Shown here: positions 2,412 to 23,067 of the stretch, in pieces | How positions within the stretch are numbered: the stretch's first letter is position 1 | How the letters are laid out: each line of letters opens with the position of its first letter | Source of the DNA: a virus | Length of the DNA: 23,697 bases | IMG/VR virus record: IMGVR_UViG_3300046010_000362 | Coordinates: 1 to 23,697 of that record | Reading direction: 5' to 3' (one strand) | Translations under genes and position numbers: made by a program | Notes under the pieces: model-generated | What the model was told of the DNA's origin: nothing | The model's input: the letters and a program-made list of their open reading frames with translations, nothing else | Database searches by the model: none

Positions 2412-4382
2412 ATGCAGAATAAATTAGTAGAATGGGTTGTTGAATATGCTGACGAGTGGAGAGAACACCGTGATATCAACTATCTAGAAGACTGGAAAGA
2501 ATTCGAACGTTTATGGCGAGGTGAGTGGGCTGCTGAGGATCGTACTCGTGAATCAGAACGTAGTCGTATCACATCACCAGCACTACAACAAGCTATTGAG
2601 AATCATACAGCTGAGATTGAAGAAGCTGTCTTTGGTCAAGGAGCTAACTTCTTTGACATTGAAGATGACATGAAGGACCAAGATAAAGGCGACATTGAAT
2701 ACCTTAAAGCCTACATGAAAGAATGCTTCAAAAAGAATAAGACTCGTAAGAACATTGGTGATTCTATCTTATTAGGTTCTATCTATGGTACTGGTATTGG
2801 TGAAGTTATTACTAAGAAAGTAAAAGAATTAGTACCTGCTACTGAGAAACTAGAAGATATTAATGCTATGGTTATTGGTACACTAGAAACTGACAAGGTT
2901 AGTGTAACACTTAAACCAATTTCTCCTCAGAATTTCCTTATTGATCCTACTGCAACTACCATTGATGACGCTTTAGGCTGTGCTATTGAAGAGTTTGTAT
3001 CTGCACATACCATTGCTCAGAACATTAAGAAGGGTATTTACAAAGATGTTAAGTCTATGGGTGATGAATCTTCACCTGATTCTGACTTAGAAACATCATG
3101 GATTGATCAAGAATTCCAAGATGACAAGATCCGTATCTTGCGTTACTATGGTTTAGTACCTAAACATTTGCTAGATGCCTCTAAAGAAGAGGGAGATATA
3201 GTTGATCTCTTCGAACCAGAGGGAGAATCTGAGGTAATGGAAGAGTATGGTGACTTAGTAGAGGCTATTGTTGTCATTGCAGATGATCAATACCTACTAA
3301 AAGCTGAAGAAAATCCTTACATGATGAAGGATCGTCCAGTTGTAGCCTACCAAGATGACACAATTCCTAACAGATTCTGGGGTCGTGGTGTAGCCGAGAA
3401 GGGTTACAACATGCAAAAGGCTATTGATGCACAGATTCGTAGTCATATTGACTCATTAGCTCTAACAACTGTACCAATGATGGCTATGGATGCTACTCGT
3501 TTACCACGAGGTAGTAAATTTGAGGTACGTCCAGGTAAATCTATCTTGACAAATGGTAATCCTGCAGAGATCTTGATGCCATTCCGCTTTGGTACCACAG
3601 ATTCAGGTAATATTGAGACAGCTGCTAAGTTTGAAACCATGTTATTGCAGGCAACAGGTACCTTAGATACAGCTGCTATGCAGGCACAACCTGTGGGCGG
3701 TGAGTTATCTATTCAGTTGTCAAGCATTATTAAGAAAAACAAACGTACTCTTGTAAACTTCCAAGATCAATTCTTGATTCCTTTCATTGAGAAAGCAGCT
3801 TGGCGCTTTATGCAGTTTGATCCAGACAATTTCCCAGTTAAAGACTGGAAGTTTGTCCCTGCATCTACACTAGGTATGCTTGCTCGTGAAGTAGAACAAC
3901 AACAGTTTATTAACTTGATGAAGACTCTAGGACCTGACAGTCCCCTAGTACCTATCTTAATGCAAGGTGTGATTGAGACATCTAACCTAGCTAATAAACA
4001 ACAGTTGTTACAGATGCTAGCTCAAGCTATGCAACCTAATCCACAGCAACAACAGATGGAACAGATGCAAATGCAACTACAAGCTGGTCTTGTACAGGCA
4101 CAAACAGCAGATCTTACTACTAAAGCTCAGAAGCAACAAGCTGAAGCTCAGAAGACTGCAGTTGAAACTCAATTACTACCTGAAGAAATTAAAGCTAAAC
4201 AGATTGCAGCTTTATCTACTAACTTAGATGCTGGTAATGGTGATGATAAAGAGTTTGAACGTCGTGTTAAAGTAGCAGACCTACTACTTAAAGAGAAGAA
4301 AGTAGATCTACAAGAGCAAGACATGATGCAGAATCGTGAGATTGTTAAGATGCAAATGAAAAACAACTTGACAAATGACTAA
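2412..4382 (+). CDS. Portal (head-tail connector) protein
   Basis: 656 aa, preceded by an AGGA Shine-Dalgarno 8 nt upstream of the ATG. The portal is the dodecameric ring at one capsid vertex that nucleates head assembly, receives the terminase and later binds the tail tube. Support is the position directly after terL and before the scaffold, the length, and internal segments usual for podovirus portals (GSIYGTGIGEV near residues 120-130; the FWGRGVAEK region near 320-330 followed by a long helical stem). Residues from about 540 are strongly Gln-rich (QQQQMEQMQMQ) and predicted coiled coil, like the helical barrel or crown at the C-terminus of P22-type portals. The last codons contain the -35 box of the promoter that drives the following block. 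Confidence 0.9.
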   Translation: MQNKLVEWVVEYADEWREHRDINYLEDWKEFERLWRGEWAAEDRTRESERSRITSPALQQAIENHTAEIEEAVFGQGANFFDIEDDMKDQDKGDIEYLKAYMKECFKKNKTRKNIGDSILLGSIYGTGIGEVITKKVKELVPATEKLEDINAMVIGTLETDKVSVTLKPISPQNFLIDPTATTIDDALGCAIEEFVSAHTIAQNIKKGIYKDVKSMGDESSPDSDLETSWIDQEFQDDKIRILRYYGLVPKHLLDASKEEGDIVDLFEPEGESEVMEEYGDLVEAIVVIADDQYLLKAEENPYMMKDRPVVAYQDDTIPNRFWGRGVAEKGYNMQKAIDAQIRSHIDSLALTTVPMMAMDATRLPRGSKFEVRPGKSILTNGNPAEILMPFRFGTTDSGNIETAAKFETMLLQATGTLDTAAMQAQPVGGELSIQLSSIIKKNKRTLVNFQDQFLIPFIEKAAWRFMQFDPDNFPVKDWKFVPASTLGMLAREVEQQQFINLMKTLGPDSPLVPILMQGVIETSNLANKQQLLQMLAQAMQPNPQQQQMEQMQMQLQAGLVQAQTADLTTKAQKQQAEAQKTAVETQLLPEEIKAKQIAALSTNLDAGNGDDKEFERRVKVADLLLKEKKVDLQEQDMMQNREIVKMQMKNNLTND

Positions 4383-4396
4383 TCTTATGGTATAAT
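4368..4396 (+). promoter_or_regulatory. Consensus sigma-70 promoter ahead of the head-protein block
   Basis: TTGACA at 4368-4373 and TATAAT at 4391-4396 are separated by exactly 17 bp, with TGG before the -10 box (extended -10). Both hexamers match the consensus in all positions. The -35 lies within the last codons of the portal gene, and the predicted start is near 4403, leaving a leader of about 46 nt before the next gene. It shares the TTGACAAAT and TGGTATAAT ends with the promoter at 11631-11659. Transcription here would raise expression of the 78-aa protein, scaffold and capsid. Confidence 0.88.
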
Positions 4397-4448: not shown

Positions 4449-4685
4449 TTGGATCAAGAATTACAAAAATATTATGAAGAACGTTTTACAACTATGGCAA
4501 CACAAGGTTGGCGTGACTTCATAGAAGATGTAGAAAATTTCTATGAGAACTATAATAGGGTGAATACTATAGAAACCTTTGAAGAGTTCCATAAACGTAA
4601 AGGGCAGTTGGATATTCTACAATGGATTCTCTCACTAAAAGATGTGAGTGAACAAACCTACGAAGAATTACAACAAGAAGATTAA
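4449..4685 (+). CDS. Small conserved phage protein before the scaffold, function unknown
   Basis: 78 aa if translation starts at TTG 4449, which has an AAGGA ribosome site 10 nt upstream at 4434-4438. The next in-frame ATG (4494) would remove the first 15 residues and lacks a comparable site. The protein is mainly helical, acidic and aromatic (KYYEERF, GWRDFIEDVENFYENYN), ending with KGQLDILQWILSLKDVSEQ. The same pattern (YYE.RF...GW..f.ed, then KGQL.IL.W) is familiar from small genes between portal and scaffold in podovirus genomes, where no function is assigned. It is the first gene after the 4368 promoter. It could be an assembly cofactor; that is inferred from position only. Confidence 0.8.
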   Translation: MDQELQKYYEERFTTMATQGWRDFIEDVENFYENYNRVNTIETFEEFHKRKGQLDILQWILSLKDVSEQTYEELQQED

Positions 4686-4693
4686 CTTAGGCT

Positions 4694-4800
4694 TTCCAAG
4701 TATGGCAATTTACTTGGGTAAAAAAGTAAATATAATATTGCCAAAAAAGAAATTAGATACTGCCAAGTATTTAGTTCCTTTCCTACAATGCTATTAAGCA
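4694..4800 (+). promoter_or_regulatory. Candidate structured leader RNA (possible H-type pseudoknot) upstream of scaffold gene
   Basis: This fills the only sizeable gap in the head block (4686-4813, 128 nt). CCAAGTA (4696-4702) pairs with TACTTGG (4711-4717) as a 7-bp stem. Seven of the eight loop bases, TGGCAAT (4703-4709), are exactly complementary to ATTGCCA (4737-4743). The connecting strand 4718-4736 is A-rich, as is common in loop 3 of H-type pseudoknots. A second CCAAGTAT at 4763-4770 could compete for TACTTGG, giving an alternative pairing. A small TGCT/AGCA hairpin (4789-4800) sits just before the GGGAG ribosome site of the scaffold gene. Against it: the first connecting loop would be 0 nt unless a pair frays, and a TATAAT at 4731-4736 could instead be part of a weak promoter. 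Confidence 0.4.
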
Positions 4801-4813
4801 CGGGAGAAATAAT

Positions 4814-5599
4814 ATGGCACAAGACTTAGATGATGTTTTAGTTAGTTCAATCGAAGAAGAGAACTTTGATCTTCCAGACAATCCTCAAGGTGAGGAATCT
4901 GTAGCATCAGGGGCTCCATCTGAGGATGATCTACCAGAGAAGTATCGTGGCAAGACCGCAAAAGAAATTGCATCAATGCACCAAGAAGCTGAAAAGTTAA
5001 TTGGAAAGCAGGGCAGTGAAGTCGGTGAGTTACGACGTGTGGTAGATGACTACATTAGAGCACAAACATCGAAAGACTTAAAGACAAAGGAACCAGAACT
5101 AGATGATGGTGATTTCTTTGTTGATCCAAAGAGTACTGTTAATAAAGCAATTGATAATCATCCTGCTATTCTCGAAGCTAAGAAAGCTTCATTTGAGATG
5201 AAGAAGGCCGATACTCTATCAAGGTTAGGTGCTAAATACCCTGACTTTATGGAGACTGTAGAAGATCCTGCCTTTGGTGACTGGATTAAAAGTTCTAAGG
5301 TACGTACAGAATTATTTGTTCGTGCTGAAAGTCAACTAGACTTTGATTCTGCAGATGAGTTATTAGCTACTTGGAAAGAGAAACAATCAATCACTAAGAA
5401 AGCATTGGACACTTCGAAGATGGACAGAGATAAACAACTTCAAACAGCCGACGTAGGTTCTAATTCATCTACTGAAAAGGTTTCTAAAAAGAAATATCGT
5501 CGAAGCGATATTATTAGACTTATGCAAACTGACCGAGCCAAGTATGACGCATTATCTGAAGAGATTTTGAAGGCATATGCGGAGGGTCGAGTAATATAA
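4814..5599 (+). CDS. Capsid scaffolding protein
   Basis: 261 aa, with a GGGAG ribosome site at 4802-4806 before ATG. It is a highly charged, largely helical protein with an acidic N-terminal third and no enzymatic motif. The C-terminus turns basic (VSKKKYRRSDIIRLM) and ends in an amphipathic helix with the pattern DRAKYDALSEEILKAYAEGRV. Scaffolds of T7/P22-like phages end in such a basic helix that touches the coat protein. The location immediately upstream of the major capsid gene and downstream of the portal is the standard one. It would direct procapsid assembly and leave before or during packaging. No protease signature is present, so cleavage-driven maturation is not indicated. Confidence 0.88.
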   Translation: MAQDLDDVLVSSIEEENFDLPDNPQGEESVASGAPSEDDLPEKYRGKTAKEIASMHQEAEKLIGKQGSEVGELRRVVDDYIRAQTSKDLKTKEPELDDGDFFVDPKSTVNKAIDNHPAILEAKKASFEMKKADTLSRLGAKYPDFMETVEDPAFGDWIKSSKVRTELFVRAESQLDFDSADELLATWKEKQSITKKALDTSKMDRDKQLQTADVGSNSSTEKVSKKKYRRSDIIRLMQTDRAKYDALSEEILKAYAEGRVI

Positions 5600-5622: not shown

Positions 5623-6573
5623 ATGGCTTTAGGCTCTAATCACGTAACCACAACTACCGCTGCAAACTTTGTTCCAGAAATTTGGAGTGATGAGATTGTA
5701 GCAACTTATGAAAAGTCTCTTGTAGCTGCTAAGCTCTTTAAGACAATGCCAATGACAGGTAAGAAAGGTGATACAATTCACATTCCTACCCCTACTCGTG
5801 GCGCTGCTTCTTTAAAAGCTGCAAATACACAAGTAACTTTACAAGCATCAACAGATAGCGATATCGCTGTTGTTGTAGACAAACACTATGAATACTCAAA
5901 AGTTATTGAGGATATCGTAGAAGTACAAGCTCTAGCTTCAATGCGTCAATTCTACACTACAGATGCAGGTTATGCACTTGGTCGTCAAGTTGATAGCTCA
6001 TTGTTACAACTAGGTCGTACATTCAATGGCGGTTCAGCAGGTGCTCGTTATAATGCTGCTTACATCGGTGGTGACGGTACTACATTGTTTGACTACACAG
6101 CTAACACAAATACAGGTAATGCTTCTGCATTGACTGATGCTGCTATCCGTCGTACAATCCAACGTCTTGATGACAATGATATTCCTGAAGAAGGTCGCTT
6201 CATGATTATCCCTCCATCAGCACGTAACACATTGATGGGTATTGCTCGTTTCACTGAACAAGCTTTCGTTGGTGAAGTAGGTAATGGTAACACAATTCGT
6301 ACAGGTCAAATCGGTAACATCTATGGTATTCCAGTTTATGTTTCATCTAACTGTGACTACTTGAATAGTGCTGCTGATGGTTCAGGTACAAACTTAGGCC
6401 GTGCAGTATTGATCGGTCACCGTGATGCTGCTGTTCTTGTTGAACAACAAAAAGTTCGTTCACAAGCTCAGTACAAACAAGAGTACTTAGGCACTCTATA
6501 CACTGCAGATACAATCTACGGTGTTAAAGAGTTGCGTGACAATGCTTGTTTCGCATTAGCAGTTCCTTTATAA
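5623..6573 (+). CDS. Major capsid protein (HK97-fold)
   Basis: 316 aa, with an AAGGA ribosome site 9-10 nt before ATG. It forms the icosahedral shell. Features include an N-terminal arm followed by PEIWSDEI, a glycine/lysine loop (MTGKKGDTIHIPTP) like the E-loop or early beta region of phage coat proteins, and the segment VIEDIVEVQALAS leading into the spine-helix region; a later RFMIIPPSARN strand belongs to the A domain. Length is in the range for T7-type coat proteins, and the gene follows the scaffold by 23 nt. Codon choice is strongly biased to CGT, GGT and GCT, as expected for the most abundant virion protein. A strong terminator-like hairpin begins 9 nt after the stop. Confidence 0.92.
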   Translation: MALGSNHVTTTTAANFVPEIWSDEIVATYEKSLVAAKLFKTMPMTGKKGDTIHIPTPTRGAASLKAANTQVTLQASTDSDIAVVVDKHYEYSKVIEDIVEVQALASMRQFYTTDAGYALGRQVDSSLLQLGRTFNGGSAGARYNAAYIGGDGTTLFDYTANTNTGNASALTDAAIRRTIQRLDDNDIPEEGRFMIIPPSARNTLMGIARFTEQAFVGEVGNGNTIRTGQIGNIYGIPVYVSSNCDYLNSAADGSGTNLGRAVLIGHRDAAVLVEQQKVRSQAQYKQEYLGTLYTADTIYGVKELRDNACFALAVPL

Positions 6574-6582
6574 GAAACTGAT

Positions 6583-6614
6583 AGATGGCCCTTGCTTAGG
6601 CAGGGGCTATTTTT
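6583..6614 (+). terminator. Rho-independent terminator after the capsid gene
   Basis: TGGCCCTTG (6586-6594) pairs with CAGGGGCTA (6601-6609) across a 6-nt loop (CTTAGG). Three further pairs (6583-6585 with 6610-6612) extend the stem at its base, and the run TTTTT lies at 6610-6614. It would end or attenuate transcripts right after the capsid gene, lowering expression of the fibre and lysis genes downstream, which have no obvious promoter of their own. Confidence 0.82.
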
Positions 6615-6828: not shown

Positions 6829-8898
6829 ATGACTACTAGTAGAGGTATTTACAGAGCACCTGGTGGGGTTGGAGATGCAGTAGCAGATACAAGTAACCAG
6901 TCTGCCACAGCTGTTGCGGCTGCGGCTGCGGCTGAAGCTAGTGCATTAGCAGCTGCTTCTAGTGCTACAACTGCCGCTGGATCTGCAACTAGTGCCTCAT
7001 CAAGTGCAACTACTGCTACCAGTCAGGCAACTTCTGCAACAAGTTCAGCAAGTGCTGCAACCACTTCTGCTAGTAATGCTGCTACAAGTGCAACAGCTGC
7101 CCAAACTGCTGAAACAAATGCAGAGACTGCTGAAACTAATGCTATAGCTAGTGCAGAGTTAGCTCAGGATTGGGCTACTAAAACTACAGGGCCAGTTGCA
7201 GGGAGTGAATACTCTGCTAAATATAATGCAACTCTTGCAGCAACTTCTGCAAATAATGCAAGTACTTCTGCAAGTGCTGCTTCAAGCAGTGCTTCTTCTG
7301 CCTCATTAAGTGAATCAACAGCTATAACAAAAGCTTTAGAAGCTTCTACTAGTGCATCTAGTGCGGCAACGTCTGCAACTAATGCTTCTACATCAGCATT
7401 AACAGCTACAACTAAAGCAAGTGAGGCTAGTTCTTCAGCTTCTAGTGCCGCATCTTCAGCATCAACAGCAACTACACAAGCCTCTAATGCTTCTACTAGT
7501 GCTTCTACTGCAACTACACAAGCTGGAATTGCTACAACTAAAGCAGGAGAAGCTGCTACTAGTGCATCTAATGCAGCATCAAGTGCATCAGCTTCAAGTA
7601 CATCTGCTACAAATTCTGCTAACAGTGCTACTGCTGCAAGTACAGCTCAAACAGCAGCCGAAACTGCTTTATCTTCTACACAAGCTATCTATGATAATTT
7701 TGATGATAGGTACCTAGGGGCTAAAGCAACAGATCCTACACTAGATAATGATGGTAATGCTCTAGTTATTGGAGCTTTATTTTTTAGTACAACAGACAAC
7801 ATTATGAAAGTGTATACTTCAACAGGATGGTTGTCTGCTTATGCTTCTTCATCAGGAGGTTTATTAGCAAGTAATAATTTATCAGACGTAGCTAGTAGTT
7901 CAGCATCTAGAACAAATTTAGGTTTAGGTTCTATTGCAACTCAAAATTCTAATTCAGTAAGTATTACTGGAGGAACAATTGATGGTGTAAGTCTACTTAA
8001 TATTGTTGATTTAGATGTAGCTAATAATGTTCAGATTGATGGTAACTTAACTGTATCTGGTACTACTGTAACTATTAATGCTACAAATTTAGCTGTTGAA
8101 GATAATATGATTTATCTTAATGAAGGGTCTATAGTATCAAACCCAGACTTAGGTATTGCAGGTAATTACAATGATGGTACTTATCGCCATGCTGGTATGT
8201 TTAGAGATGCTTCAGATGGTCGTTGGAAATTCTTTCACCAATATACATTAGAACCTGATGCTTCTGCTTATATAGATACAAGTCATGCTTCTTTTGCTTT
8301 AGCTGACTTACAAATTAATACTCTTTATGGAAATGTATCTGGTAATGTTACAGGTAATTTAACTGGTAATGCAGATACTGTTACAAATGGAGTAGTTACA
8401 TCTGGAAGTTACTCAGATCCTTCTTGGATTGTATCATTAGATGATGGCAAAGTACTCCCATCAATGACTGGTAACTCTGGAAAAGTTTTATTTACTGATG
8501 GTTCTAATAGTTATTGGGGAACTGTAGATTTAACTACTAAAGCAAATACTGATGGGTCTAATGCTACAGGTACTTGGGCAATATCTATCAGTGGAAATGC
8601 TGCTACAGTAACTAATGGAGTATATACTTCAGGTAGTTATTCTAATCCATCTTGGATTACTAGTTTAAATTATTCTAAGCTTACTGGGACTATTCCAACA
8701 TGGAATCAAAATACAACAGGAAATGCAGCAACTGCTACAAACTCAACAAACGCAACAAAACTTGTTACTACAAATTGGACTGTAGAAGAAGTATCAGGCG
8801 CATTGCATTTTAAAGTTGGCGGAGTTGCAAAAGCTAAACTTGATTCAAACGGAAACTTAACTGTTGTTGGTAACGTAACAGCTTACGGAACTATTTAA
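6829..8898 (+). CDS. Tail fibre/appendage protein with long Ala-Ser-Thr repeat stalk
   Basis: 689 aa. The N-terminal residues 1-25 (MTTSRGIYRAPGGVGDA) look like a short attachment segment. From about 20 to 285 the chain is almost only Ala, Ser and Thr with spaced Gln, Glu, Asn and Lys, a pattern of trimeric coiled-coil or fibrous stalks in phage side fibres. A conserved module follows at 289-340 (DNFDDRYLGAK...GALFFST..N.MKVYTSTGW), then NNLSDV...RTNLGLG and beta-helix-like repeats (ITGGTIDGV, VQIDGNLTVSG). Two similar blocks near residues 515-545 and 590-620 share VTNGV.TSGSYS.PSWI. These features fit a host-recognition fibre. The last 50 codons change in codon choice toward those of the next gene. 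ATG follows the previous stop after one base. Confidence 0.85.
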   Translation: MTTSRGIYRAPGGVGDAVADTSNQSATAVAAAAAAEASALAAASSATTAAGSATSASSSATTATSQATSATSSASAATTSASNAATSATAAQTAETNAETAETNAIASAELAQDWATKTTGPVAGSEYSAKYNATLAATSANNASTSASAASSSASSASLSESTAITKALEASTSASSAATSATNASTSALTATTKASEASSSASSAASSASTATTQASNASTSASTATTQAGIATTKAGEAATSASNAASSASASSTSATNSANSATAASTAQTAAETALSSTQAIYDNFDDRYLGAKATDPTLDNDGNALVIGALFFSTTDNIMKVYTSTGWLSAYASSSGGLLASNNLSDVASSSASRTNLGLGSIATQNSNSVSITGGTIDGVSLLNIVDLDVANNVQIDGNLTVSGTTVTINATNLAVEDNMIYLNEGSIVSNPDLGIAGNYNDGTYRHAGMFRDASDGRWKFFHQYTLEPDASAYIDTSHASFALADLQINTLYGNVSGNVTGNLTGNADTVTNGVVTSGSYSDPSWIVSLDDGKVLPSMTGNSGKVLFTDGSNSYWGTVDLTTKANTDGSNATGTWAISISGNAATVTNGVYTSGSYSNPSWITSLNYSKLTGTIPTWNQNTTGNAATATNSTNATKLVTTNWTVEEVSGALHFKVGGVAKAKLDSNGNLTVVGNVTAYGTI

Positions 8899-11630: not shown

Positions 11631-11659
11631 TTGACAAATATACTATATTGTGGTATAAT
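11631..11659 (+). promoter_or_regulatory. Consensus sigma-70 promoter ahead of the tail block
   Basis: TTGACA at 11631-11636, exactly 17 bp, then TATAAT at 11654-11659 with TGG upstream (extended -10). The predicted start is about 11666, only some 18 nt before the ATG of the tail tube A gene. It sits in the 64-nt gap after the i-spanin stop and restarts transcription for the tail and ejection genes, which lie downstream of the capsid terminator. Confidence 0.9.
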
Positions 11660-21008: not shown

Positions 21009-22859
21009 TTAGTTAACTTCACAACTTCCACCTGAACAAGCTAAGTTATCCTTAGCCTCTGTTAAATCATCATGTTCAACTACCTGTGTTAAATCAATAG
21101 CTGCCATATGTTTAAACATTTCTTCAAACACTTCTTTAGTACAATCTTCGAATGGTGCTTGTTGATATGTACCACCATTGTAAGGTAGAACAGAAATACC
21201 TGTGTAGTCATAGCGATTATCCCACATCCACTTACCACACTCTTTCCATTCATCATCTTTCAATGAGATAGTGCATGATACATTATGTTTGTTGTTACCA
21301 CTAACATGACCATTAGCTACCCATTCTAGATTGAATCGTTTAACTCGTTCTAAAATCTCCTTATAACTTTCTGTTCGTAAAATTGCACCTTGTGGAGCAC
21401 GTTGTGGGAAACTCATTACAGCTTCTAAGTGAGGTTTGTATACACAGTCCTCAATTAAAGAAGGAAATCTGTCAACCATGTAGCTATATAACGGCTCATT
21501 CTTTCCAACACGCATACGACGGATATAATAATCGTTATGCCAAGCATGAATTCCAGAACTACTTCCAAGAACCAACGACGTTGTCCCTGCAGGTTTAACA
21601 GTAGTAATACGGGCAGAAGAATTAATACCGATAAGAGCAGCAACACGTTTATTCTCCTCTACTGTAACTGCAGCAGCTTCATTTAAGTCAAGTTTAAGTA
21701 CACCAGCTGAGGCAATACCTGTCATTGATACACCAAGTAAAGCTTCTCGTTCTGTTGTTTCTTTCCAAACACTACGTAAGTAATGGAAGTCTGTATATCC
21801 TGCTTGTAGTGTACCAATTAGAGTAGCTGCTTTGACTCGTGCATTTAGCTCTTCTTGTGTTACTACATCTGATACGTTAACTTCTACTAGGTTACAGTAC
21901 TGATTAGAGTTAAGACTAATCTCTGCACATGGGTTAGTACCAATGTCATAGTCGTTAGTCCAGAATACACCAGGTTCTCCTGAACCAGATAACTCTACTT
22001 TCTTCCAGATGTCATACCATTCTTGTTCAGTAACTTCTTCCCTATTAAGGACTACTGAATTGTTAGCACGACCTCGTTGTGGATTTAATTCCCACCATGC
22101 ACCTGACTTAGCTGATAACATATCTAAATCATCCTTGTCAAACAAGGAGATTAATGCAGCACGTCTAATGCCGCCAGATAAGACAGCATCGGCAATATGA
22201 CAAACCATGTCGTGTACTTCAATAGGCTTGAGTTTTCTTCCGATACTGTCATTAAGCACACTACGAAGCTTATCCAAACAGATACGTAAAGGGTCTGGTC
22301 CAGGTGCCTTCCCTCCACTTGTGATAAGCCTACTCCCTTTAGGACGAATATCACGGAAATCAAACACAGGGTCAGACTTGCCAAGAGTGTAAGCTTTAAC
22401 AAGAACTTTAACAGCATCTGCCCAACCTTCAATAGAGTCTCCAACTAAGAATCTCCTTTGTTTAGATGATGGCCCAACAATCGTAGGTAGATTTTCAACA
22501 TGCCGCTTCTGAACAGAGAAGCCGACTCCAGATCCACCAAGTAAGTTAAACATTGTTTCGCTAAAGACTGCTGGATGATCAACAGCGGAGAAAGCACAAT
22601 TAAACATGCGGTTATTACTAAGTTCAATAGGAGTACCTCCAAACTGTAACGAACGCATCGAAGGTAGAACTTGCCTATTAAATACAAACGTGTATGCACT
22701 TTTGATTTCCTCTTTCATCTTAGGATATTTACGTAAGTGCATTGCCATGTTACGTTGCACTAACTCTTCCCATGTTTCTCGACGTTCTGCTTCTGGAACA
22801 TACTTAGCATACTTGTTGAAGATTGTAATATCTGATAATACTTTCTGACTAATATCCAT
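21009..22859 (-). CDS. nrdJ: Class II (adenosylcobalamin-dependent) ribonucleoside-triphosphate reductase
   Basis: 616 aa from ATG 22859 (MDISQKVLSD). It makes deoxynucleotides from ribonucleotides for phage DNA synthesis, using a B12-derived radical without a separate radical subunit. Conserved residues by position: C88 in RMFNCAF and C322 in QYCNLVE (active-site redox pair), C311 and E313 in TNPCAEISL (radical cysteine and glutamate), and the pattern GGSGVGFS (109-116). The VKPAGTTSL loop is at 421-429 and the C-terminal relay pair at C608/C613 (CSGGSC). The spacing C311 to C322 (11) and C608 to C613 (5) equals that in the Lactobacillus RTPR family as I recall it, while the region between C88 and C311 is shorter. 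It depends on host B12. The frame is open to 22976, but that extension would cover an upstream gene and has no ribosome site. Confidence 0.93.
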   Translation of the reverse strand: MDISQKVLSDITIFNKYAKYVPEAERRETWEELVQRNMAMHLRKYPKMKEEIKSAYTFVFNRQVLPSMRSLQFGGTPIELSNNRMFNCAFSAVDHPAVFSETMFNLLGGSGVGFSVQKRHVENLPTIVGPSSKQRRFLVGDSIEGWADAVKVLVKAYTLGKSDPVFDFRDIRPKGSRLITSGGKAPGPDPLRICLDKLRSVLNDSIGRKLKPIEVHDMVCHIADAVLSGGIRRAALISLFDKDDLDMLSAKSGAWWELNPQRGRANNSVVLNREEVTEQEWYDIWKKVELSGSGEPGVFWTNDYDIGTNPCAEISLNSNQYCNLVEVNVSDVVTQEELNARVKAATLIGTLQAGYTDFHYLRSVWKETTEREALLGVSMTGIASAGVLKLDLNEAAAVTVEENKRVAALIGINSSARITTVKPAGTTSLVLGSSSGIHAWHNDYYIRRMRVGKNEPLYSYMVDRFPSLIEDCVYKPHLEAVMSFPQRAPQGAILRTESYKEILERVKRFNLEWVANGHVSGNNKHNVSCTISLKDDEWKECGKWMWDNRYDYTGISVLPYNGGTYQQAPFEDCTKEVFEEMFKHMAAIDLTQVVEHDDLTEAKDNLACSGGSCEVN

Positions 22860-22911
22860 ATTGTTTCTTTCTTTTCTAGGATAGTTTAATAAATTAATAG
22901 GAGGAAACCAC

Positions 22912-23067
22912 TCACTCCAACTCAGCACAAATGGTTTCATACCTATCTTCAATCTTATCTGCAAAAGCGTATACAAGATCTTGAGTAGTTAATCCTAGTA
23001 GATCTATCAAGTCTACTTCATCAATCTGCTCAATTATTTTTTCTTGTAATTCAGTTATTGTTAACAT
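22912..23067 (-). CDS. Small phage protein, 51 aa, function unknown
   Basis: ATG at 23067-23065 on the minus strand, stop TGA at 22914-22912, with GGAAG 5 nt upstream of the start. The sequence is acidic and helical: MLTITELQEKIIEQIDEVDL, then LIDLLGLTTQDLVYAFADK and a short end. The motif LL.LTT.DLV.AF.D.I is one I associate with short ORFs of the replication region of podophages. Function is unknown; it could be a small regulatory or inhibitor protein. It overlaps the upstream 44-aa gene by 17 nt and lies 52 nt before the reductase start. Confidence 0.75.
   Translation of the reverse strand: MLTITELQEKIIEQIDEVDLIDLLGLTTQDLVYAFADKIEDRYETICAELE

What the first reader, a model, noticed from the sequence alone, without database searches (positions are those of the whole stretch)
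4694..4800. Possible H-type pseudoknot and alternative pairing in the scaffold/capsid leader
In a genome where genes overlap or touch, a 128-nt non-coding gap stands out. It contains a 7-bp hairpin (CCAAGTA 4696-4702 with TACTTGG 4711-4717) whose loop TGGCAAT (4703-4709) is perfectly complementary to ATTGCCA at 4737-4743. The linker between (4718-4736) is A-rich, as in many H-type pseudoknots. A second CCAAGTAT (4763-4770) could capture the 3' strand of the hairpin, so two exclusive folds can be drawn, and the second ends near the ribosome site of the scaffold gene. This might be a switch or coat/scaffold-binding RNA that tunes scaffold and capsid translation. The geometry needs one pair to fray (no loop-1 base), and the AT-rich context raises the chance of accidental pairing.
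Basis: partly seen in the sequence, partly recalled or inferred. Interest (0 to 1): 0.6.

Follow-up and report, generated by a model that had tools for sequence, protein, structure and literature searches.

The report
Structured RNA leader before phage scaffold
A metagenomic phage and its relatives keep a conserved three-part RNA fold (a pseudoknot, a hairpin, and a hairpin hiding the ribosome site) just before the capsid-scaffold gene; in most relatives the pseudoknot also lies inside a small protein gene, and this phage has lost that gene but kept the fold, which probably tunes how much scaffold and capsid protein is made.

Summary
All motifs lie at the stated coordinates, and 0 of 300 dinucleotide shuffles of the gap give so good a knot.

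The H-type pseudoknot is real. A near-identical relative (L003) differs from the window at six sites in the 128-nt gap. Four of them form two exact compensatory pairs in the predicted loop stem; the other two also keep pairing.

In about 45 further distinct relatives the same knot lies inside the 3' end of a small zinc-ribbon gene. Its stem 2 sequences vary widely but keep pairing (154/200 cells against 120 with swapped partners; 19 double compensatory changes on a tree against 0-2 in slid registers). The window's "gap" is the relic of that lost gene: the protein went, the RNA fold stayed.

Its CCAAGTAT is one strand of a separate covarying hairpin. A third hairpin, covarying across the wider family, holds the scaffold Shine-Dalgarno sequence.

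Best explanation: a knot-hairpin-SD-hairpin leader that controls translation of scaffold, and through it capsid, in a promoter-to-terminator operon. The structure is near certain. The control step and any binding protein are inferred. No Rfam family matches.

The parts
4368..4396 (+). Perfect sigma70-type promoter with extended -10 (TTGACA-17-TATAAT, TG before -10), start of the scaffold/capsid transcription unit
   Evidence: 12/12 match; 11-12 of 12 at the same place in 19 of 19 relatives tried, shuffles 8-9
4449..4685 (+). 78-aa ORF, conserved upstream neighbour, no known family
4691..4760 (+). Relic of the 3' end of a zinc-ribbon (Zn_ribbon_8/FmdB-like) ORF that is intact in relatives (..GSFPGAAxxWDKKRKQ..) and lost here
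   Evidence: gene absent from the 38.8-kb near-identical record, positive controls found
4696..4717 (+). Pseudoknot stem 1: 4696-4701 with 4712-4717 (a seventh pair 4702-4711 probably frays)
4703..4743 (+). Pseudoknot stem 2: 4703-4709 with 4737-4743
4718..4736 (+). A-rich loop 3 that crosses stem 1 (16-20 nt, 63% A across relatives)
4751..4776 (+).
4779..4807 (+). SD hairpin: 4779-4784 with 4802-4807, inner stem 4789-4792 with 4797-4800, invariant internal loop A-N-A-A opposite C; the SD GGGAG (4802-4806) is paired
4814..5599 (+). Scaffold protein gene
   Evidence: phrog_19777 head scaffolding protein, 5.2e-07
5623..6573 (+). Major capsid protein gene
   Evidence: (phrog_267, 8e-53)
6584..6614 (+). 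Intrinsic terminator after the capsid gene (12-bp stem, then T tract)
   Evidence: -19.3 kcal/mol

Best explanation
The gap is a cis-acting mRNA leader made of three consecutive folds: an H-type pseudoknot, a hairpin (H2), and a hairpin that pairs the scaffold Shine-Dalgarno sequence. It lies inside one transcription unit: host-type promoter, 78-aa ORF, (zinc-ribbon ORF in relatives), leader, scaffold, capsid, terminator. SHOWN by sequence comparison: the three folds are under selection as RNA of the + strand; the knot sits 64-76 nt before the scaffold AUG even when the overlapping zinc-ribbon gene is shortened or lost. INFERRED: the SD hairpin keeps scaffold initiation low. Opening of that hairpin raises scaffold synthesis and, by proximity, capsid synthesis; it would be opened by a ribosome ending on the zinc-ribbon gene in relatives, and by breathing or a bound factor here. 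The knot with H2 acts as the upstream control module, most likely a docking site for a protein made in the operon (scaffold or capsid, as feedback) or a spacer that keeps the initiation region folded and protected. In the ancestor the knot was written into the last codons of the zinc-ribbon gene; the window lineage deleted the gene and kept the knot.
For: Six of six window/L003 differences keep pairing, including two compensatory pairs in stem 2, which was predicted before any comparison. Stem 2 over 25 distinct arm combinations: 154/200 cells paired against 119.9 +/- 4.9 with swapped partners, 0/5000; whole knot 82.3% against 23-47% in slid registers, covariation score 0.340 against 0.03-0.12; 19 double compensatory changes on a scaffold-protein tree against 0-2 slid. 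Pairing exceeds codon-preserving shuffles in the clade (15.5 against 11.6), not in 20 outgroup sequences (11.05 against 10.5). Register is constant and shifts by exactly one codon when the linker loses a codon. In the inner six pairs G-U outnumbers A-C 14 to 1, as expected for sense RNA. H2: own halves -244 against -130 +/- 11.7 kcal/mol permuted, 0/5000. SD hairpin: 95.8% of cells paired against 37-58% slid, 7 of 8 pairs with double changes, one strong site in each of 14 genomes. Knot-to-AUG distance 64-76 nt while knot-to-stop distance varies 9-26 nt. Promoter and terminator.
Against: No experiment; host unknown. The control step is inferred from position. The SD hairpin also exists in relatives without the knot, so the knot is not needed for it. 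SD hairpin stability is moderate (-7.5 kcal/mol), so repression may be mild. In relatives the knot would be unwound by each ribosome on the zinc-ribbon gene. Stem 1 is nearly invariant and partly fixed by the FPG..W codons, so it is supported less by covariation than stem 2. A few sub-clades (L320/L381/L330, L362, L228) have weak or no stem 2. The pseudoknot-free minimum-energy fold of the window draws stem 2 with a different inner helix. The L004 version of the knot is not significant alone (17/300).
Confidence: 0.6

Rival explanations
1. Processing or stability element: the knot is a roadblock or 5' cap that protects the scaffold/capsid part of the operon mRNA after endonuclease cleavage, giving these cistrons longer life than the upstream ones; translation is not its target.
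For: It sits at the boundary between low-need and high-need cistrons in one transcription unit, is compact and stable, and works without the overlapping gene.
Against: Does not explain by itself the constant 64-76 nt spacing to the AUG or the covarying SD hairpin.
Confidence: 0.22
2. Ribosome pausing or coupling device of the zinc-ribbon gene: the knot slows ribosomes near the end of that ORF and so sets how often the terminating ribosome opens the SD hairpin.
For: In relatives the knot lies in the last 60 nt or so of the ORF and the stop codon lies inside or next to H2.
Against: The window lineage lost the ORF but keeps the knot under selection. No slippery heptamer precedes it.
Confidence: 0.1
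3. By-product of protein coding or chance pairing in AT-rich DNA: FPGAA..WDKK codons happen to pair and the window copy is just a decaying pseudogene.
For: Stem 1 coincides with conserved Phe-Pro-Gly and Trp codons; the window stretch is a gene relic.
Against: Codon-preserving shuffles, swapped partners, slid registers, the tree test and the non-coding window/L003 compensations.
Confidence: 0.02
4. DNA-level element such as a secondary promoter (TTTACT-16-TATAAT, 4709-4736) rather than an RNA.
For: 10/12 match to the sigma70 consensus inside the knot.
Against: The -10 and -35 are absent in coding relatives; G-U tolerance points to sense RNA; a far better conserved promoter lies upstream.
Confidence: 0.04

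Closest known systems
T4/T2 gene 32 translational operator (PMC3014915)
   Same: H-type pseudoknot in an mRNA leader, in the region 67 nt upstream of the initiation codon (here 64-76 nt), proposed to set translation of the gene below
   Different: Downstream of the T4 knot the leader is unstructured and A+U-rich and is coated by gp32; here two covarying hairpins follow, one holding the SD. The gene is a capsid scaffold, not a single-strand DNA-binding protein. The knot is overlapped by another gene in relatives. Loop 3 is long (16-20 nt; the shorter loop of the T2 knot is from my own knowledge).
Phage P22 scaffolding-protein autoregulation (own knowledge; no open paper found)
   Same: Scaffold synthesis adjusted after transcription; the portal here belongs to the SU10/P22 portal group
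   Different: No RNA operator is known to me for P22; no feedback has been tested here
Coat-protein operator hairpins of RNA phages such as MS2 (own knowledge)
   Same: Small hairpin with a conserved internal irregularity that occludes a ribosome site
   Different: DNA phage; conserved feature is an A-N-A-A/C internal loop; binding protein unknown
Recoding pseudoknots (-1 frameshift, stop readthrough; PMC3835772 as general reference)
   Same: H-type pseudoknot geometry, A-rich loop 3
   Different: No slippery heptamer and no useful extension; position differs between lineages relative to reading frames

Membership tests
H-type pseudoknot (structural class) | Two stems with the loop of stem 1 pairing downstream, short loop 1, loop 2 of 0-1 nt, supported by covariation | tested here: met
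T4 gene 32-type translational operator | Pseudoknot at a fixed distance upstream of the regulated start codon | tested here: met
   64-76 nt in 47 distinct relatives, 70 in the window
T4 gene 32-type translational operator | Unstructured A+U-rich stretch between knot and SD for cooperative protein binding | tested here: not met
   covarying H2 and SD hairpin occupy it
T4 gene 32-type translational operator | Regulated gene encodes a single-strand nucleic-acid-binding protein that binds the leader | tested here: not met
   downstream gene is a scaffold; binding itself not testable
-1 frameshift stimulator | Slippery X XXY YYZ heptamer 5-9 nt before the knot in an overlapping frame | tested here: not met
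   sequence before stem 1 is ..TCAGGAAGCTTT or TTAACTTAGGCTTT, read by eye
Stop-readthrough pseudoknot | Stop codon about 8 nt upstream of the knot with a conserved extension frame | tested here: not met
   only the window lineage has a stop 10 nt upstream; reading on meets a stop after 11 codons; relatives have no stop there
Any Rfam 15 family | Score above the curated gathering threshold | tested here: not met
   none in the window or 12 loci; only chance-level hits at relaxed threshold
Autogenous translational operator of a phage structural protein | Product binds the leader and lowers its own translation | not testable with these tools
   needs binding and reporter assays

The most novel reading that the evidence does not exclude
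The leader is the RNA operator through which scaffold (or coat) protein controls its own synthesis in a widespread family of podovirus-like phages. The knot and H2 dock the protein, and the H2 loop (GCC in most sub-clades) can also pair with the invariant AUGGC at the scaffold start, closing the site. The operator arose inside a zinc-ribbon coding sequence and outlived that gene.
Probability: 0.2. Interest if true: 0.78.

Novelty: new variant of a known kind. Interest (0 to 1): 0.62.

Why it matters
Phages must set the ratio and timing of scaffold to coat. Scaffold autoregulation after transcription has been known for decades in P22 (own knowledge), without an RNA target that I know of. Here is a compact, strongly covarying leader at exactly that gene, not in Rfam, in many metagenomic phages, with natural compensatory mutants ready for testing. 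It also shows an RNA fold written into the last codons of one gene and kept after that gene was lost, which separates RNA selection from protein selection. The SD hairpin, with its invariant internal loop, is a second, wider RNA element of the same phages.

Tried and rejected
Alternative fold of 4763-4770 with 4711-4717 (-6.3 kcal/mol in isolation against -8.9 for stem 1): rejected because that segment belongs to H2, which covaries, and CCAAG is not kept at that place in most sub-clades. Rfam: nothing. Recoding: no slippery site and no conserved frame. Secondary promoter inside the knot: not conserved. DNA similarity search in cultured phages: no match; the nearest cultured relatives by capsid are about 30-38% identical, mostly Saffermanviridae, which have scaffold directly against portal and lack the SD-hairpin model match. 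Genome-contig scan for a host: nothing usable. T7-type RNA polymerase search: no match, but the control also failed, so uninformative. MAFFT could not place the linker gap, so the knot alignment was made by register, and the tool count used linker-trimmed sequences. Literature on scaffold autoregulation RNA targets: nothing in the open library; the 2017 paper on 224 candidate RNAs is not held.

Full report
THE OBSERVATION. Every motif is at the stated coordinates. The gap 4686-4813 separates a 78-aa ORF from a scaffold gene (phrog_19777) followed by the major capsid gene. The window is an IMG/VR virus record of 23,697 bases. A scan for H-type knots in the gap scores 34.5; 0 of 300 dinucleotide shuffles reach it.

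THE FIRST TEST, CLOSE RELATIVES. L001 and L005 are identical in the gap. L003 (capsid 99% identical) and L102/L152 carry TGACAGT/ACTGTCA where the window has TGGCAAT/ATTGCCA: two exact compensatory pairs, 4705-4741 (G-C to A-U) and 4708-4738 (A-U to G-C). The two remaining gap differences, G4756A and G4802A, turn G-U pairs into A-U pairs in H2 and in the SD hairpin. All six differences therefore keep pairing. Six random transitions do so with probability about 8e-4, and give two or more compensatory pairs anywhere with probability about 6e-4. Stem 2 had been drawn before any comparison.

THE GAP IS A GENE RELIC. In relatives with 55-62% identical scaffold, a zinc-ribbon ORF of about 70-82 aa (Zn_ribbon_8 type, 1.3e-07, just under the Pfam cut-off) lies between the 78-aa ORF and scaffold. 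The window sequence GGCTTTCCAAGT...CTTGGGTAAAAAAGTAAA aligns to its 3' end, AGCTTTCCAAGT...CTTGGGATAAAAAGCGTAAA (GSFPSAADAWDKKRK). The gene is absent from the 38.8-kb record that is identical to the window here, while the same search finds it in control records.

THE KNOT IS IN THE CODING RELATIVES TOO. 81 distinct zinc-ribbon 3' ends were collected. In the clade with this scaffold type, the loop of stem 1 pairs with a stretch 16-22 nt after the Trp codon: GCAATGG/CCATTGC, GGCTATG/CGTAGCC, AGCAGCC/GGCTGCT, AGCGAGTT/AACTTGCT, CAGCCGAT/ATTGGCTG, TGCGATG/CATCGCA. The register is constant and shifts by exactly three when one linker codon is missing. Controls: codon-preserving shuffles (clade 15.5 against 11.6; outgroup 11.05 against 10.5); swapped partners 154/200 against 119.9 +/- 4.9, 0/5000; slid registers and shuffles; 19 inferred double compensatory changes on a scaffold-protein tree against 0-2 slid. 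G-U outnumbers A-C 14 to 1 in the inner six pairs, pointing to sense RNA. Stem 1 is mostly CC(A)GG/CTTGG and nearly fixed, so it is supported mainly by position. In L004 (85% capsid identity, also without the gene) a diverged knot can be drawn, CTAGG/CCTAG with ACAGA/TCTGT, but alone it is not significant (17/300).

TWO MORE FOLDS. Between knot and start lies H2 (4751-4776). In 35 distinct sequences its mean z is -2.45, and own halves pair at -244 against -130 +/- 11.7 kcal/mol when swapped, 0/5000. Examples: GATTAACTAC/GTAGTTAGTT, TTAAGCA/TGCTTAA, CTAAGAA/TTCTTAG, CAAGC/GCTTG against TAAGC/GCTTA. Immediately before the AUG an SD hairpin pairs UUUCCU with the SD, with an inner stem and an invariant A-N-A-A/C internal loop. 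Over 30 sequences, including the wider family without the knot, 95.8% of cells pair against 37-58% slid, and 7 of 8 pairs show double changes. A covariance model finds one strong site per genome in 14 of 14 genomes (the four extra hits score below 19 bits), and L007/L008, which were not in the model.

OPERON. A near-perfect extended -10 sigma70 promoter (TTGACA-17-TATAAT) is kept upstream of the 78-aa ORF in 19 of 19 relatives tried, and a strong terminator follows the capsid gene. The transcription unit is promoter, 78-aa ORF, (zinc ribbon), leader, scaffold, capsid, terminator.

FUNCTION. The knot-to-AUG distance is 64-76 nt (70 in the window), while the distance to the zinc-ribbon stop varies 9-26 nt, and the knot persists without that gene. 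This ties it to the scaffold gene or to the RNA itself, not to the zinc-ribbon reading frame. Together with the SD hairpin, translational control of scaffold is the most likely role; mRNA stability is the main rival. Which protein, if any, binds is unknown. The closest analogue is the T4 gene 32 knot, in the region 67 nt upstream of its start (PMC3014915), but there the stretch below the knot is unstructured, so membership is not claimed.

LIMITS. Alignments are guided by the structure; the tool count for the knot used linker-trimmed rows; several rows are close relatives; some sub-clades have a weak stem 2; host unknown; no experiment.

Noticed in passing
window 4779-4807: SD hairpin with invariant A-N-A-A/C internal loop upstream of scaffold, covarying across the whole family and wider than the knot; no Rfam match. 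Made part of the finding.
   Followed up: yes
window 4368-4396 and 11631-11659: Two perfect 12/12 sigma70 promoters with extended -10 in a 23.7-kb window; the first is conserved in all relatives tried, suggesting these genes are read by host RNA polymerase.
   Followed up: partly
window 4762-4765 and 4814-4819: H2 loop carries GCC in most sub-clades and every scaffold start is AUGGCA; loop and start codon could pair (UGCCA/UGGCA in the window). Might be a further closing contact.
   Followed up: partly
window 4702-4797: A 31-codon ORF starts inside the knot and stops in the loop of the SD hairpin; codons change amino acids between window and L003 and it is absent in L004, so probably not a gene.
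   Followed up: partly
window 6829-7660: Dense 21-nt-register Ala/Ser/Thr-rich repeats in the 689-aa tail-fibre-like ORF.
   Followed up: no
window 21009-22976 (-): Ribonucleotide reductase gene on the opposite strand to the structural genes.
   Followed up: no
L066, L067, L078, L080: Some relatives have an extra 147-157 aa ORF inserted between scaffold and capsid genes.
   Followed up: no
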